Assembly (NCBI GenBank): GCA_015227615.1
Contig: JAALGZ010000007.1
Span: 1,736,001 to 1,800,000, forward strand
Reading direction: 5' to 3'
Origin: Labyrinthula sp. Ha
Lineage: Eukaryota; Sar; Bigyra; Labyrinthulida; Labyrinthulaceae
DNA length: 64,000 bases
The notes below the pieces were generated by a model. The model was not told where the DNA came from and searched no databases. It saw only the letters and a program-made list of their open reading frames with translations. A program made the position numbers and the translations under genes. Shown piece by piece: positions 1-28,289 of this stretch. Every line of letters begins with the position of its first letter. Positions within the stretch are counted from its first letter, which is position 1.

Positions 1-2434
1 GTTCGCTAACCAAGTGTTGGAAAAATTGAGCAAAGCTCTTGGTTTCACCCACAACTTCGCGGTGAGTTACGCGAGTTGGACGAACGGTGAAATTGAGGTG
101 GTACACAAAAAAGTACTTGACTTTTTGAAGGCCCTTGTATCGGAGAGAAGATATCAATGGGATGAATGGCCTTTAGTACTGGGCACTATACAGGCGGCAA
201 TGAACGATCTACCCATCATGTCTAGAAAGCTTCCAGGGGAAAGTAAGGCGCCTTGTGCAAACCAACTTTTCCTGTTCATAAATCCTGAGAAGGATTATAT
301 TGAAGCTGCTGCTTTTCCGAGGTTGATCTCGAGAAAGGTAGGTGGGGAAGTGAAGGTAATAGATACTGAAGGGGACACCTTCTTTAAGTTATCGAAGAAA
401 TTTCGAGATCAACTCGATGAGTATCAGGGTCGGGTTGCTGACTATGTGTCTCTGATGAAATCTAAAAGAAATGCCTACTGGAATAAAAGGAGGAAGCGTT
501 TTGATAAGGCTTTGCTCCAATATCAGGTAGGTGAATGGTGTCTCATTAGCACTGCTAAGACGCCGAGAGAGACTAACAAGATTAAGCTTGAGTGGTCTGG
601 CCCTGTATTGATACAGGAGGCACTTAGCAATAATGTGTACCGGGTGCGACTCTTGAACGGTATGACCTTAACGGTTCATGCTTCAAGGTTGTATTTTTAC
701 GAGCCCTCAGGGTACGTGCCGGATGACGCATTGAGAAAAATCTTTATCAATAATTGGGGTGAGCTTGAAGTGGGGAGGTTCCATGGATTGCGATACTCTA
801 ATGGAGAATGGTGGTTACATGTCCATTGGAAAGGGTTCGAATCTCGAGATGATACTTGGGAACCTCTCAGATCTATGTATAAAGATGTCAAATCACTTGT
901 CATAAAATACTTAGAGAATCAGAGGAAGCCTGTAAGGGATAAAAGAAACTCGAAGAGGGCTATGGCCTGGATCGAGAGACATATCCTAGGTGATATCAAT
1001 GTTAGCTGGGTTGGTAAAATGAGGCCTAATCTGAGATCGCATCTTCTAGTTGAAGGTAACTGGTGGGAGGAACGAGAGGCTGTTCCTTTCTACGTAAAGA
1101 ATTGGTCTGAGTTGGAAAAATTTGTTATGAGATGTCTCGTGAAATGCTTCGGTATGGGCGACTTTGAGTCGTTTACGAAGTTCATGCCACATAAATCGAA
1201 GGCAATGATGTACTCATATATTCAGAGAACTATGGGAATCATGAGCTTGGCTGGATTTAATGGTAGAAAAATTGATATAGCCTCGGAAGATCGAAAGCAA
1301 GAATATAATTTTCCAGTGGAGAATATTCTGTGTTCATGGAAGTATGATTCTTTTGAGACGGCGAAATCATTGATGAGCTTCGTGATACCAGAGGGTGCAG
1401 GGAAAGCATTCTGCAGACAAGTAGAGAGAATGCAATCAAAAGCGAGACAGGATGTGTCTAAGGTGAGAGACTGCTTGCAAGAATTGACTGAAGTAAAAGG
1501 TTTATGGCTAGAAATCTCGAAGTATGTATTCGAGGGGTTATCGTTTGTAAGTAATCCTGAAGGATATATTTTGGATGACCGTAGAACCGTGACTTTGGTT
1601 GAAACTGTAGAAAATGTTCAAATAAGTAGTGAGAGTATAGAGACTAGCTCTGACTTAAGGATATTTATGAAAGTAGACAATATAGGTAACTTCACTTTGA
1701 CCAAACTGTATGGCAATATATTTGACCTGTCGGGTGAGTCGTGGCCTTTTTCGGTAAAGGTCTGCATATTCCCTAGAGAGAGAACTTGGTATTTTGCTGA
1801 TGTTTATGAAGGAGATACCGTTGCTTCATGGCCAGGTGATGAGGTAGATCTTCTCCTTGTCGATCCACCATGGGCCACTGGAACCTTTAATCCTGTGAGA
1901 GGGATCCGAACTCGATATCCTAAATGCAAAGATTCTGAGGTCCTCGATATACCTTTTGAGAACATGAAGCCGGAATTCATTGCTATCTGGGTTATCGAAA
2001 GGAATCTAGGCAGAACCTTACAACATTTTGACAAGCAACAGTACGACTTAGTTAATATAGTTGACTGGATTAAATGTACCAAGTCAGGGGTCTTGCGTAC
2101 ATCCTTGGGTTATTACTTTCAACACTCGGTAGAAATGCTGCTGGTGTTTGCGTCTAGAACTAAGAAAGAGAGGGTTCTTGATGAGACTCATAAGCTGAGG
2201 GAAATAGAGTTACTATGGGCTGATCGGTTAGAAAATGGTGTAAAGCCTTTGAAGGCTTATGAATATTTTGAGTCAGTATTTGGAAGGAACACTCTTAAGG
2301 TTGAGCTTTTCGCAAGGTGCTGCAACCTGCGAAAAGACTGGGTTCAATTGGGATTCGAGGTCGATCCTCGATCAAGTGGGGTTGCTTTTGGTTGTGGCAT
2401 GTCGACGAATGGAAAAGAGGCACACCTCTTTTAA
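1..2434 (+). mobile_element. Ty3/Gypsy-type chromovirus, 3' part: integrase, chromodomain, SANT-like segment, MT-A70 methyltransferase
   Basis: The left window edge cuts the element, so gag, protease and reverse transcriptase are not seen. One frame is open from the edge to a TAA at 2432-2434 (about 806 codons). In order it holds the end of an integrase core and its C-terminal domain (codons 1-240), a chromodomain (about 250-305, with VHWKGFESRDDTWEP), a SANT/Myb-like stretch (about 364-415), a linker I do not recognise, and an MT-A70 domain with the catalytic DPPW at codons 617-620. The MT-A70 end, KVELFARCCNLRKDWVQLG, matches the conserved end of METTL3/IME4-type enzymes. Chromodomains in such elements are known to bind modified histones and steer integration; MT-A70 enzymes methylate N6 of adenine in RNA or DNA. 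The part in view looks whole, and an intact long frame suggests a young copy. Confidence 0.85.
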
Positions 2435-2850
2435 GATGAGAAGGGGGATGTGTATGTTTGATTAGTAACGTCTCAGATAACTTGGGTTATTTAACTAACT
2501 TCGTATAACATATATAGTATTTGAACTATTGTCAACAGTATGGTTACCTGTGTAAGTTAATTGCAGACCTATAGAATAATTGTAAGTAGAATAAATATCA
2601 CATATGCATTTTGGGAGATCTAGAGTAGAGTTAATAGATAATAACAACATTTTGAAAACTTTATAGATTCTCGTCTAAGACACAGTTTTCGGTAAGTGCA
2701 AAAACCCCTGAGTGTTAACAACGCCTTGTGAGTTTATTGCATTGATACTTAGCATAGTATCGGAGTTTGTGGCTTGAAGAGAGCCCTTACAAAGTCTGTG
2801 GATAGATCCCTTAGCAATAAGAGCGATCTAGTTGTATCCAATAGTTACTT
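2435..2850 (+). repeat. Polypurine tract and probable start of the 3' LTR
   Basis: A purine run (GATGAGAAGGGGGA, 2435-2448) directly follows the polyprotein stop and is followed by TGTGTATG, the usual TG start of an LTR. The right boundary cannot be fixed because the 5' LTR lies outside the window; the end given is a guess. Confidence 0.45.
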
Positions 2851-5198
2851 CGGATACGAAAAGACATAGAACGTAGTCGTTCTATTGTGATAGCACGTTC
2901 TCATACGTCTGAACGCTCGAGGGTTTTCCGAGTGTACAAATACTGTATTACTTAAAAGAATGCTGTCGAACTGCTGCTGTTTCATTTTCCACTTGTACAA
3001 ATATGCTTCTTTAAGAGCCAAAATGTGTTGACATACTCCTATGGTTTTCAGCATGAGTTCTTCTTTTGCTTTATTTTCAAACTACATGTTATTTATGAAG
3101 GAAAAGGACATCATGAGAACACATTTTTTTAACGAAGTCCGTATATTTCAAAGTAATAGGATCTACTTGTGTGTCAACGTTCTAGCTAAATGTACTCCAG
3201 AAACGACTGGTTGCTTCAGCTTTGAATAAAAAAAAGCTGCAGGGAAATAATATAAGATAAAATCAAGGTAAAATTAGAACCCCACTTCAGTATAGCAAAC
3301 TTAGATGCAGTGCGCTTAAAATGTTTTAGGACTTTATTTAGTCTTTGAACATGGTAGGTAACTGAAAAAAACTTTGTGAAAAGAATTTCTTTGTGAAATG
3401 CGGAGGATTGGAAAAATATATAGGAAACGTTCTTCCACAGTGCCTGTATTTTTCCTTTTCACAATCGAAGAAACTTAAGAATTTTCAACTTTACCAGGGT
3501 AATAAAAGTTTGGTGCTCAAAGTTGTAATTGGCAGGGAAAATATGGGTGTCTTACTTCAGACTAGTAAGACACAATCTCAACCTAAGTTTAATATCTGTT
3601 CCCTATTTAAGCAAATAACCGACTGTGACCTTCATAGCAACAGCAATTAGATATCTATCTCATCTTCTTACCATAGTTTATTTATTCTATACTGTGGCCA
3701 AACTATTCGAGTTTTATTTGAAGCAATATCCACTATGTTCGAATTTCTTATATCGAACAAGCAGAGTTATTATATAAGCTGCTTATTAAAATATATATAT
3801 AATATATAGGTGGTTTCTATGGAAATAAATACTGTTAGTATTTAAACTTAAGTGACTGCTAAATGTAACACTTTCCACAAAACTACAACACACACAACTA
3901 CTTTCGTTTTCAAAGTTTTTTCTTGAGTAACACGAAATATTTAATGCAATGAAATGATGTTGAAATATATCATCACATTTGAGATAGCTGGCTTTTATTT
4001 TGCAAAAGTATCTTATTCTCGGCTTTGTACAGGTTGAAGAAGAAAGACGAACACTTGTTGCAAAATTAGCTCGTTTCCAGCAAGTTTTCAAGAACATAAC
4101 AAAAACTAAGCTTGTGTAACTTGTTTGGATGAGTTCGATGCGAAGAATGAAGGTGTTTTAAGCTGTTTCATAAGATTGATATGCTCTAACTGTATAAGAA
4201 AAACATTAGCACCTGTTTCGAAGAACATGCAGGGAATACGTTTCCCTGCCCATCCCTATCACACTGCGCAGATCTTTCCCTTTCGTACAAAATTATTAAA
4301 AAAACTATAAATGCTATCAAGCGAATGAGACAGCAAAACATATTTTTAGGAGACATAAATAAAGGATTTACAAAAGCTGTTGTACGCAGAAGCCAGGATA
4401 TGTTGCCATGTCCCGAAAAGAACTGTAGCAACGTTGTAGTTTTAGAAGTCTCTTGTTTGGATGAAAGTTCTAGACCCGGAAAGAGAAATAGACAACATAA
4501 TACTTTTGTAATATTTATGGATAGAGGTCTTGTACATTATGTAAAGAAGATTGGTTTACACAATATATCTCCTATTTTTTCGGCTTTTATAGTCTTGTTT
4601 TTAGTGCACGACTTCGGCGTATTACTGAAATTGTGATTTAAGGCTGAAAAAAACTTCAGATGAATTTTCTCGTTTAAACTAAAATTAGAGTAATGGTCAT
4701 ATCATATAAAAAGTTGTTTTTAATGACCAAAATAGACAGCTGCTATAACACAGCAGAACACATGTTGATCAATCCTGCTAGAGGTTTGCAAGAAGAATTA
4801 TTTCAAAGATTAAAGGAGCGAAGCAAAAAGCACAAGAAAATGTTAGTACTCAGATATGAAACATTTTATTTAAAATCTGCCGTTTGCGCAGGTGTGTAGT
4901 TGAAAATGTTGGGGATTCGAGTTTGCTGACTCTGTGAGATGTGGAAAGACCTTCTGTTTGGTTTGGCAAGAAGTAAAGCCTTGCATGCACTGACATCACT
5001 ACAGTTATTAAAAAGTAATTATTGAAATGTATTTACCTTTGAATAAAAATATTACAAGTATAAAATCCTATGTGTCCATAGTTCAACAGGACCCGTAGAA
5101 CACTCTAACAGATAGTCTGGTTACTTTATAAGAATTTTCCCAAAAGGGAATCATCTTGCAAGACACACAATTCATTCGACGAAAGGAACAGTTGCAGA
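2851..5198. other. Gene-poor stretch
   Basis: No gene is recognised. There are weak open frames on the plus strand at 4325-4636 (103 codons, hydrophobic C-terminus) and 4693-4899 (68 codons, basic and helical-looking), neither with a known motif. A short coiled-coil-like run preceded by a splice-acceptor-like TTTGTACAG lies near 4022-4120. A small AT microsatellite is at 3790-3808. These may be relics of a decayed gene. Confidence 0.4.
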
Positions 5199-25100: not shown

Positions 25101-26639
25101 CTTGAAATTACTAAAATGCCATCACCTTGTTAATAAATGTACTAATTCCATAACATAAAAATATGAACACACTTCTTAAGACACCCTGTATCTTTCTCCA
25201 GAAAATATAAGCCCATCTATAAGGTTTTTTACGAACTACTTAAAAATACGTTACTGCGATGTTAAGTTGTAGCATGTCCCCTCCTTAAAAATCAAGTATC
25301 TGTGTTCAAACTTAGTATGGGTTCTTAAATTTCTTGAGATCATACATACCCACTAATAGCAAAATATTACTACAGTGAAGTGCCCCTGGAAAATGATCTA
25401 AGTAATATCCAATGGCTATAAACTGAGCTGAAGGCTTGAAGAATACTAACCAATTTATGAAACTACAACTAAATACCGAATAATATATAATTCAAAATGA
25501 AGCATCAGTATCCCAAATGTCCAAAGCTGTTGTTTGAATTATAATCTATTGAGATTGTGCTTTAAGTCCGAGAATTTTCTTATGCCACAATTCTTCACTC
25601 AATATAATATCGTGTTGTTTTCTATTTTAAGGTTACACATTTTCCTACTCTTCATCACAGTTCAATTTATTCCATCTATAACATTATTGGCATGGACTGA
25701 TACATCTACCACCATTCTTTTAACGGGGTAGAAACTTCATCTAGTTTATTTATTTAAATTTAAACCTTTGAACACTAGCATCTTTATAATACGTTGAAAT
25801 CTTTTTTTGCCTTTATAATATTACTATATTTCGTTGATGAACATATCTTAGACTCTATTATCGAAGAAAATTATAAGATATGGACATCATTACTACCCTA
25901 TACTGGTGCTAGCAAAGATTATAATTGTCTTCCTGTCCGAAAAAACTCCAAAATATATTCATATTGGTTCCTAATAAGTGTATTCCTAGCTCATCAATAT
26001 TAGATGTGGTTTTCACTAGGGTAGTGTTCAAGTCTTTAACTTATTAACAACTCTAGTGGTTAAATTGTGGGATAACTACAAAAAATTAAAGAAGTTAATG
26101 TGCTCAATCTGTCTACCAGCAAATATTCTATGATGGAGAGGTCAATTGTGCTGGGTGATGTTGTTTGAGCCTAAGAACGCGCGATACTGTTGTTAAGAAC
26201 TCTATAATTTTCTAGGCTTTAGAAGGTGCTGTCTTTAAAAAGGTTGATTCTGGTTTGTTTGTATTCTTCTCAGAGAGTTATTGACTTTGCTATACCATAA
26301 AACCCAGGGATCTATTGTAAAATTTCTTCTAAAGTGAGAGCCGAAATTATCTGTGATAACTGGATAATTCGGCCATTTGGCCCAATATTGCATCAAGCGG
26401 TGGTTTTTAACGAAAATTGAAGTGACTATTTTCTGTTTTCTTAATAAATCCGACAGGTAACGTATATATAAGTTACAGTAATTTCTTATTGTTAATGTCC
26501 CATAAACTACCTACTAGATGAAGTAACGATTCTAAAATATAAATTTCCAGTCAAATATGTTGACACCGAATTCAACCGAATTTCCTCGATTTTCGAAAAA
26601 CAACAAATCAATTCCAAATCCAATTCATAAAAGAAAACA
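22200..26639. other. Gene-poor stretch upstream of ALA synthase
   Basis: No gene recognised. Open frames are short. Parts of 23.3-24.9 kb read on the minus strand look faintly like decayed retroelement coding sequence, but I could not assign a family. At the right end, 26341-26382 holds inverted repeats (see the regulatory entry). Confidence 0.35.
26341..26382. promoter_or_regulatory. Inverted-repeat cluster about 260 bp upstream of ALA synthase
   Basis: CCGAAATTATC at 26341 pairs with GATAATTCGG ending at 26372 (one extra A on the left); inside it TTATC-TGT-GATAA is a perfect inverted repeat. GGCC-ATTT-GGCC follows at 26371-26382. Such symmetry suits binding of a dimeric regulator, but no factor can be named. 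Confidence 0.3.
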
Positions 26640-28289
26640 ATGTTAACATTATCTGATAAACTACGTATTTCCAAGTCCACCTTGATGAACTGCCCTTTCC
26701 TAAAGCGTTCCTCAATAACGGATATTGAGTCTTTCGTACAAAAAGCACAAAAGAATGGACTAGCTAGTAAGTTGTGCCCATACTTACTGGCTCACAGAGA
26801 TCTGGTAACTGATTCGAATATCCAGAGAGTCGCAACGAAGGAAGACGTCACTCCTGCACCAACCGAAAAACCTCAATTTTCCAACGAAAACTTTAGTGGA
26901 AAAGTCAATTACAATTCGTTTTTTGCAAACGAAGTGAAAAAAATTAAAGATGAAGGGAGATATAGAATATTTGCGGATCTCGAAAGAAACGCAGGAAGTT
27001 TTCCAGTTGCCTCCTTCCACGATGCGAAAGAAGATAAACCGAAACCTGTCATTGGATGGTGTTCAAATGACTACTTAAGTATGGGACAGCACCCTAAGGT
27101 GATGAAAGCTATGCACAAAGCTATCGACCAATCAGGAACAGGTGCTGGAGGAACTAGGAACATTTCAGGAACTAACCATAACCACGTACTTTTGGAAAAG
27201 GAGCTTGCGGATCTTCATAAGAAAGAGGCAGCCTTGGTTTTTACCTCCTGTTATGTGGCTAATGAAACAGTTCTTTCTACCATGTCTAAGTTAATGCCAG
27301 AGTGTGCAATCTTCTCTGATCAGTATAATCATGCTTCTATGATTCACGGAATTTTGAATGGAAAATGGGGAAGTGGAAAACACATTTATAGACATAATGA
27401 CTTGAACCACTTGGAGTCCTTGCTTAAGCAGTTTAATGCAAATGGAGGAAGAAACAAACCCAAGCTGATCGCGTTTGAGAGTGTGAACAGTATGGAAGGA
27501 AGTATTGCTGACATGAACGCCCTTGGATATTTGGCTAAGAAGTATAATGCAATGACTTTTGTTGATGAAGTTCACGCGGTTGGAATGTATGGAAAAACTG
27601 GCGCAGGTGTTGGCGAAAGAGATAATGCTAGTGGTGCAATGGACGTTATTACCGGAACTTTGGGCAAGGCATTTGGATCTATGGGAGGTTATATTGCTGG
27701 CAGTGCGGACTTCGTTGATGCAATGAGATCTTCTTGCCCTGGTTTTATCTTTACTACCGCAATTCCTCCTGCTGTTGCTGCCGGTGCTAGACAAGCAATT
27801 AAGCTGCTGAAAGAAGATTCTGCTATTCGAGTAAAAATGCACTCGAATGCACACAAGGTTCAGCACATGCTTCGAACCCGTGGTTTTCCTTTGTTCCCTA
27901 CTGTTTCTCATGTTACCCCTGTTTTAGTTGGTGATGCTACCAAATGTCGATTAGTTTCTCAAATGTTGATGGATAGATTTAGTATTTACGTTCAGTCTAT
28001 TAATTTTCCAACCGTACCCAAAGGAACGGAGCGTCTTAGAATTACTCCTAATCCAGTGCATACTGATGAGATGATTGATGAACTTATGTTTGCGTTAGAA
28101 GAGATTTGGGCAGAATTAGACTTGCCAAAGGTTTATGCTGATGGTGGAAATGAGCTTGTTGTCCCTCAGCCTGAAGATTTGGAAGTTGGTGGAGAAAGAG
28201 TGTACAACTACTTCGAGGGAAAGAGCGTAGAAAGCTTCTTGAATAATGTGGAAGTTGCAAAGGGTAGAATGGTTGCTGCTGCAGCTTAA
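26640..28289 (+). CDS. ALAS: 5-aminolevulinate synthase, mitochondrial
   Basis: This PLP enzyme condenses glycine with succinyl-CoA to 5-aminolevulinate, the first step of heme synthesis, in the mitochondrial matrix. The gene has one exon of 549 codons. Residues 1-90 form a leader with two Cys-Pro heme-regulatory motifs, NCPF (Cys18) and LCPY (Cys46); in animals such motifs let heme block import or trigger turnover, so heme feedback is likely here too. The catalytic domain begins at about residue 91 and contains the glycine-rich [12 protein letters not shown], the FVDEVHAVG block with the PLP-binding Asp, and the PLP lysine in TGTLGKAFG (Lys343). The C-terminal RITPNPVHT block is typical. Length and order match eukaryotic ALAS. 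The ATG opens the leader and follows an AT-rich 5' region. Confidence 0.97.

What the first reader, a model, noticed from the sequence alone, without database searches (positions are those of the whole stretch)
14..2434. Ty3/Gypsy element whose polyprotein carries an MT-A70 (m6A-type) methyltransferase
Integrase, chromodomain and an MT-A70 domain with catalytic DPPW sit in one unbroken frame followed by a polypurine tract, so the methyltransferase is part of the element and not a neighbour. Retrotransposons with cytosine methyltransferases are known in some protists and algae; I do not recall an adenine-type MT-A70 in a Ty3 element. It could mark the element's own DNA or RNA to escape silencing or to alter its fate.
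Basis: partly seen in the sequence, partly recalled or inferred. Interest (0 to 1): 0.92.

Follow-up and report, generated by a model that had tools for sequence, protein, structure and literature searches.

The report
Retrotransposons carrying an adenine DNA-methylation kit
A large group of virus-like jumping genes in a eukaryote, probably single-celled, carries, fused to its own replication proteins, relatives of two parts of the cell's adenine DNA-methylation machinery (the enzyme and a DNA-binding partner), which may let the element mark its own DNA.

Summary
Confirmed, and larger than reported. The window begins inside a 9.8-kb LTR element (LTRs 99% identical, 5-bp target duplication). 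Its pol frame runs integrase, chromodomain, p1-like Myb domain, MT-A70, stop, polypurine tract, 3' LTR. MT-A70 is significant (Pfam 1.9e-16) and nearest to ciliate MTA1/AMT1, the DNA 6mA writer, rather than METTL3/14/4. It is no chance fusion: 100 non-overlapping places on 53 contigs run from integrase (in a few only its C-terminal end) to MT-A70, in deeply diverged families; 14 of 19 copies of the window's family have both LTRs. MT-A70 is under purifying selection (dN/dS 0.07-0.11; integrase 0.04-0.09), and integrase, p1 and MT-A70 trees share 5 of 8 splits. The host has a stand-alone AMT1 and p1-like genes. Best reading: an element-borne 6mA writer acting on the element's DNA to imitate active chromatin; activity and target are inferred, and some families have altered catalytic motifs. 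Closest known: Ty3 elements with Dnmt3, DIRS elements with Dam. Eight literature searches showed no MT-A70 in a retroelement. New variant of a known kind.

The parts
2..2434 (+). 3' part of the pol frame (810 codons in the window; the frame is open for 1512 codons counting upstream)
2..721 (+). Integrase: end of the catalytic core and C-terminal part (core PF00665 match at C121:1735792-1736070, i.e. up to window 70; Integrase_p58_C-like stretch 599-691, below cut-off); outer limit judged by eye
764..931 (+). Chromodomain (Pfam stretch 818-910, below cut-off; limits judged by eye)
   Evidence: relatives L032 and L035 pass the cut-off
1100..1282 (+). p1-like Myb domain (residues 367-427)
   Evidence: E 2.2e-12 with a profile built without this clade, best shuffled sequence 0.068; direct hit to MTA1c p1 E 0.0038
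1847..2356 (+). MT-A70 methyltransferase domain, MTA1/AMT1-like
   Evidence: Pfam 1.9e-16; MTA1 9.1e-21 against METTL3 4.3e-5
1862..1873 (+). Catalytic DPPW codons
   Evidence: sequence
2438..2448 (+). Polypurine tract GAGAAGGGGGA
2449..2939 (+). 3' LTR (491 bp; 5' LTR at C121:1729142-1729632)
2940..2944 (.). Target-site duplication ATACT (also directly before the 5' LTR, L031:137-141)

Best explanation
These are chromodomain-bearing Ty3-type LTR retrotransposons whose pol polyprotein has acquired relatives of two subunits of the eukaryotic DNA 6mA-writing complex MTA1c: a p1-like Myb DNA-binding domain and the MTA1/AMT1 catalytic subunit, placed behind integrase and chromodomain. Shown: the architecture, its many copies, selection on the domains, and largely joint descent with the integrase. 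Inferred: the p1-MTase part, cut free or still tied to integrase, methylates adenines of the element's newly made or newly inserted DNA. 6mA goes with transcriptionally permissive chromatin in AMT1-bearing eukaryotes, so the new copy would be dressed as an active gene and resist silencing. It may borrow remaining host subunits (MTA9/AMT7 or p2 kind), which were not searched for.
For: In the window's family the frame ends exactly 17 bp before the 3' LTR in 14 of 19 copies, and 14 of 19 have both LTRs. 100 non-overlapping places run from integrase to MT-A70 in three searches that score only part of their candidates (42 of 58, 27 of 41, 31 of 40 rows). Profile of six families against the PDB: MTA1 1.1e-59, METTL3 9.4e-40, METTL14 2.8e-19, METTL4 (listed as Methyltransferase-like protein 2) 3.3e-16, p1 1.5e-16, p2 7e-4, c-Myb 3e-4. 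A Tetrahymena p1 fragment hits 150 places (the cap); 100 of 150 have a listed MT-A70 place 0.5-1.1 kb downstream on the same strand, against 1 of 150 upstream or on the other strand. dN/dS of MT-A70: 0.107 (13 copies) and 0.090 (5 stop-free copies), integrase 0.071 and 0.089; second subfamily MT-A70 0.094 and 0.071, integrase 0.044 and 0.040. Integrase, p1 and MT-A70 trees of 11 loci share 5 of 8 splits in each pairing; 0 of 2000 random trees share 5 or more with the integrase tree. Host: stand-alone AMT1, 57% identical to Tetrahymena MTA1, and p1-like genes. Cytosine methylase family: 2 places; Dam: 0. MTA1 is the catalytic subunit, p1 and p2 help form the DNA channel (PMC9174199 passages); 6mA goes with permissive chromatin (PMC12695648 passages and Discussion).
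Against: No activity, 6mA map or expression datum was available. DPPW is present in 9 of 14 element loci whose family sequence was read; L034 and L038 have DPAW, L035 and L043 DPPY, L037 (a broken copy) NPPW, and L040 keeps DPPW but lacks the NPxRG block. In subfamily 2 MT-A70 and p1 evolve faster than integrase (0.094 and 0.144 against 0.044). Ciliate MTA1 binds SAM stably only with p2 and works with MTA9; no such partner was recognised in the element. The window's own copy has two in-frame stops upstream, one inside RT, and many copies carry stops. The window's own p1-like domain alone is a weak PDB hit (0.0038). Structure prediction was too poor to use (mean pLDDT 37.9).
Confidence: 0.5

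Rival explanations
1. The p1-MT-A70 module is an integration-targeting tether: placed after integrase and chromodomain, it docks on the host's 6mA complex or its chromatin and steers insertion; catalysis is secondary or lost in some families.
For: Position directly behind integrase and chromodomain, where targeting domains of Ty3-type integrases sit (recalled). Families with altered motifs (DPAW, DPPY; L040 without NPxRG) keep the module.
Against: DPPW in 9 of 14 loci read, in 12 of 13 copies of subfamily 1 (L006 reads DLPW) and 7 of 8 of subfamily 2 (L027 has a stop there); dN/dS about 0.1 over the MTase domain.
Confidence: 0.2
2. It is an RNA m6A writer acting on the element's genomic RNA (packaging, translation or escape from RNA sensing).
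For: The MT-A70 family also holds METTL3 (9.4e-40).
Against: MTA1 scores well above METTL3 (77.8 against 26.3 bits for the window), and the attached domain is p1-like; p1 and p2 co-occur exclusively with AMT1 in the survey of PMC12695648 (passage).
Confidence: 0.1
3. The module changes host chromatin around the insertion or protects cDNA, rather than serving the element's own transcription.
For: Same anatomy; the chromodomain could bring the complex to silent chromatin (inference).
Against: No datum here separates this from the main reading.
Confidence: 0.15
4. Chance fusion or a decayed hitch-hiker without function.
For: Many copies carry stops; some families have altered motifs.
Against: Purifying selection, largely congruent trees, fixed 17-bp spacing to the LTR in 14 of 19 copies, open frames of 2000 or more codons at 19 of 150 MT-A70 places.
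Confidence: 0.05

Closest known systems
KnitGypsy-Dnmt3 (Gypsy element of Klebsormidium nitens)
   Same: Gypsy-type element with a DNA methyltransferase inside the Pol polyprotein, under purifying selection (Ka/Ks < 0.2; PMC5890265 passages)
   Different: There a cytosine Dnmt3; here an adenine-type MT-A70 (AMT1-like) plus a p1-like DNA-binding domain and a chromodomain, in many diverged families
DIRS retrotransposons with a Dam-like N6-adenine methyltransferase
   Same: Retrotransposon polyprotein with an adenine methyltransferase (PMC3783388 and PMC6338049 passages)
   Different: DIRS elements use a tyrosine recombinase and a Dam domain (PF05869); this genome has no Dam match and these elements have integrase, LTRs and MT-A70
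MTA1c (MTA1, MTA9, p1, p2) of ciliates; MTA1c of Rhizopus (Mta1, Mta9, P1)
   Same: MT-A70 of the MTA1 kind and a p1-like Myb domain; the host has stand-alone relatives of both
   Different: Here both parts are fused within a retroelement polyprotein; no MTA9 or p2 counterpart was recognised in the element
Chromodomain Ty3/Gypsy elements (chromoviruses)
   Same: LTRs, gag zinc knuckle, RT-RNase H-integrase order, chromodomain
   Different: Extra p1-like and MT-A70 domains; in L032-L034 a protease-like DSGA stretch lies between them

Membership tests
Ty3/Gypsy LTR retrotransposon | Two LTRs, polypurine tract, 5-bp target duplication | tested here: met
Ty3/Gypsy LTR retrotransposon | Gag zinc knuckle and pol order RT, RNase H, integrase | tested here: met
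   zf-CCHC 23.9 bits in L031; RT, RNase H, rve, chromo in that order in L032-L035, where rve lies below its cut-off; rve over cut-off in the window's copy (47.3 bits) and L020
Ty3/Gypsy LTR retrotransposon | RT phylogeny inside the Ty3 clade | not tested
   no RT reference tree was built
Chromodomain Ty3 element | Chromodomain after integrase | tested here: met
   over cut-off in L032 and L035; below cut-off in the window (18.6 of 25.1), L020, L033 and L034
MT-A70 family | PF05063 over its curated cut-off, with DPPW | tested here: met
   60.9 bits against 23.9; DPPW at 1862-1873
AMT1/MTA1 subfamily | Nearest to MTA1 among solved MT-A70 proteins | tested here: met
AMT1/MTA1 subfamily | Place inside the AMT1 clade in a tree with METTL3, METTL14, METTL4, AMT2/5, AMT6/7 | not tested
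   trees held only element rows, host AMT1, a Tetrahymena MTA1 fragment and one protein of bacterial look
AMT1/MTA1 subfamily | Writes 6mA at ApT in DNA | not testable with these tools
   needs an assay or 6mA maps
p1 of MTA1c | Sequence relation to p1 beyond general Myb proteins | tested here: met
   family profile: p1 1.5e-16, p2 7e-4, c-Myb 3e-4; window held out of the profile: 2.2e-12
DIRS with Dam | Dam domain PF05869 | tested here: not met
   0 places in the genome; the E. coli control rings
Retrotransposon with C5 cytosine methyltransferase | PF00145 in the element | tested here: not met
   no PF00145 in the element proteins scanned; 2 places in the whole genome, in frames of 340 and 428 codons

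The most novel reading that the evidence does not exclude
A whole clade of Ty3-type elements captured, once and long ago, a fused p1-MTA1 'portable 6mA writer' and uses it to stamp its own DNA with the host's mark of active genes: a self-applied active mark instead of mere evasion of a silencing mark. A single capture is neither shown nor rejected by the trees.
Probability: 0.4. Interest if true: 0.92.

Novelty: new variant of a known kind. Interest (0 to 1): 0.83.

Why it matters
Retroelements were known to carry cytosine methyltransferases or Dam-like enzymes. The eukaryotic 6mA-AMT1 pathway has been described as relatively static and as targeting endogenous genes (PMC12695648 Discussion). 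Here relatives of two of its parts travel together inside about a hundred or more retroelement copies, under selection. That makes an open question testable: does 6mA help cause permissive chromatin, or only follow it? An element that gains by writing it would argue for cause. The elements also offer natural fusions of p1 and MTA1 to study as single-chain enzymes.

Tried and rejected
NCBIfam gave no match. Three searches of the large protein database found EukProt proteins that look like the same species and one ENA protein of bacterial look (2, 2 and 9 proteins); they need shared 5-letter words, so absence elsewhere is not shown. Scans of prokaryote contigs and viral contigs found no relative. 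tRNA and tandem-repeat scans of the window were empty. The structure prediction had mean pLDDT 37.9, and no fold search was made on it. The integrase tree was wrong for L035, where the cut fell in gag; it was redone with a stricter motif. A dN/dS script failed and was rerun. Considered and rejected: chance fusion; neighbouring host gene; contamination (100 places on 53 contigs); Dam-type or C5-type enzyme.

Rows dropped. dN/dS used 13 of 19 matches of subfamily 1 (L011, L015-L019 left out as shorter) and 8 of 10 of subfamily 2 (L026, L029 left out). Trees left out near-copies and short pieces (L002, L007, L021, P0003, P0004; for p1 also L036, L037); only rows reaching MT-A70 were counted (27 of 41, 31 of 40); a few of these begin behind the integrase core (from query residue 530 in one row, 578 in two rows). 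53 of 150 MT-A70 places had no element evidence by the coordinate test; four of the 53 were read: three are broken elements (L036-L038), one is the host's AMT1 (L039). In one search only 27 hand-picked RT rows of the 150 were used.

Papers: passages only of PMC5890265, PMC6338049, PMC3783388, PMC9174199, PMC11673190, PMC11441545, PMC13297926, PMC8885841, PMC11258239, PMC5913717; passages and the Discussion of PMC12695648; other papers only as search listings.

Full report
What is there. The window is C121:1736001-1800000 of a 50.8-Mb assembly with 153 contigs. Its first 2434 bases are the 3' part of a pol frame open for 1512 codons. Upstream, outside the window, lie the 5' LTR, a gag frame with a zinc knuckle (zf-CCHC, 23.9 bits), an aspartic-protease-like DSGA motif (read by eye), reverse transcriptase and RNase H. 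The LTRs match over 493 bp at 98.99%; they are 491 bp each. ATACT flanks both ends. The whole element is C121:1729142-1738939, 9,798 bp. This copy has two in-frame stops upstream of the window, one inside RT.

The methyltransferase. Residues 616-785 match Pfam MT-A70 with E 1.9e-16. In the PDB the best matches are MT-A70 chains of the MTA1 structures (9.1e-21), METTL3 only 4.3e-5. With a profile of six families: MTA1 1.1e-59, METTL3 9.4e-40, METTL14 2.8e-19, METTL4 (listed as Methyltransferase-like protein 2) 3.3e-16. DPPW is present; F, R, N and W positions near the end are invariant over six families.

The missed domain. Between chromodomain and MT-A70 lies a Myb-like domain related to p1, a DNA-binding partner of MTA1. 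The window alone gives E 0.0038 to p1. The family profile gives p1 1.5e-16, p2 7e-4 and c-Myb 3e-4. With a profile that leaves out the window's clade, the window scores 2.2e-12, the best of 200 shuffles 0.068; the same held-out test for MT-A70 gives 3.6e-38. A 64-residue Tetrahymena p1 fragment hits 150 places in this genome (the cap). Of these, 100 of 150 have a listed MT-A70 place 0.5-1.1 kb downstream on the same strand, against 1 of 150 in the control; 50 of 150 have none, and both lists are capped.

Not a chance fusion. The window's protein finds 58 matches in the genome; 42 begin in its first 110 residues (integrase) and reach MT-A70. Queries from two other families add 27 of 41 and 31 of 40 rows, 100 non-overlapping places on 53 contigs in all; a few begin behind the integrase core. 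In the window's family 17 of 19 copies have a 3' LTR within 600 bp behind the frame, 14 of 19 exactly 17 bp behind, and 14 of 19 have both LTRs. Three copies whose match stopped early were read: two keep MT-A70 in another frame, one looks truncated. Controls: cytosine methylase 2 places, Dam 0.

Selection and descent. dN/dS within subfamily 1 (13 copies, 78 pairs) is 0.107 for MT-A70, 0.091 for p1, 0.071 for integrase; for five stop-free copies 0.090, 0.094, 0.089. In subfamily 2 (8 copies, 28 pairs) MT-A70 is 0.094, p1 0.144, integrase 0.044; for four stop-free copies 0.071, 0.134, 0.040. Subfamily 2 dS is near 1.1 in most regions, close to saturation, but only 0.24 in the linker between p1 and MT-A70 (ratio 0.32), which I cannot explain. 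Pairs are not independent, and decay after insertion raises the ratio. Trees of integrase, p1 and MT-A70 over 11 loci share 5 of 8 splits in each pairing; of 2000 random trees none shares 5 with the integrase tree. Two conflicts have support of 80 or more: L035+L043 in MT-A70 against L043+L044 in integrase, and L032+L033 in p1 against L032+L034 in integrase and MT-A70. The deep order, and so one or several captures, is open: with host AMT1 and Tetrahymena MTA1 as the others, the element group has support 28/0.

The host. One MT-A70 place (L039, frame of 327 codons) is a stand-alone AMT1: 57% identical to Tetrahymena MTA1, PDB 3.6e-73, no RT or integrase frame seen in the 4.5 kb fetched. Two of the best p1 places (L045, L046) look like host p1 genes; L045 matches p1 with 2.7e-30. 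Element MT-A70 domains are 24-41% identical to host AMT1. So the 6mA pathway seems native here, and the elements carry diverged versions of two of its parts.

Variation. Of 14 element loci read (L001, L020, L032-L038, L040-L044), 9 have DPPW, L034 and L038 DPAW, L035 and L043 DPPY, L037 NPPW; L040 has DPPW but lacks the NPxRG block. Within the window's subfamily 12 of 13 copies keep DPPW, in subfamily 2 seven of 8. In L032-L034 a DSGA protease-like stretch lies between p1 and MT-A70 (RVP 19.0 bits in L033, cut-off 20.7).

Mechanism. Shown: anatomy, copy number, selection, largely joint descent. From the literature: MTA1 is the catalytic subunit, p1 and p2 help form the DNA channel, p2 enables SAM binding, MTA9 has a structural role (PMC9174199 passages); 6mA at ApT goes with permissive chromatin (PMC12695648 passages and Discussion); Rhizopus MTA1c holds Mta1, Mta9 and P1 (PMC13297926 passages). 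Inferred: the element writes 6mA on its own DNA and thereby looks like an active gene. Rivals are a targeting tether, RNA methylation, and an effect on flanking chromatin or cDNA.

Prior art. Eight literature searches showed no report of MT-A70 in a retroelement, judged from titles, starts of abstracts and passages of eleven papers; the library lacks most subscription papers. Known are Dnmt3 in a Klebsormidium Gypsy element and in Symbiodinium DIRS-like elements and Dam-like enzymes in DIRS. PMC11673190 names an N6-adenine methyltransferase only in a legend on classical architectures.

Limits. Spread outside it is unknown. Counts from capped searches are lower bounds. The predicted structure was too poor to use.

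Noticed in passing
L033 residues 2204-2316; L032 and L034 at the same place: A protease-like DSGA stretch lies between the p1-like domain and MT-A70 instead of after gag (RVP 19.0 bits in L033, cut-off 20.7).
   Followed up: partly
L031:630-650, just after the 5' LTR: The expected primer-binding place shows no TGG start but a near-palindrome (ATTGTTATAACAATT); self-priming as in Tf1 (recalled) could be looked at.
   Followed up: no
L031:3495-3497: An in-frame stop separates the gag-protease part from pol in this copy; whether other copies share it was not checked.
   Followed up: no
L020-L028, residues 466-606 of the aligned part: In subfamily 2 the linker between p1 and MT-A70 has dS 0.24 while its neighbours have about 1.1; exchange between copies could do this, untested.
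   Followed up: no
L046:1327-2478: One of two host p1-like genes has a C-terminal extension of Tudor-like look (judged by eye).
   Followed up: no
C77:362853-363845 and C121:1129060-1130208: Two cytosine methylase places in frames of 340 and 428 codons, so a 5mC-type pathway may coexist with 6mA.
   Followed up: no
window 26631-28289: A 552-codon frame that looks like 5-aminolevulinate synthase (judged by eye).
   Followed up: no
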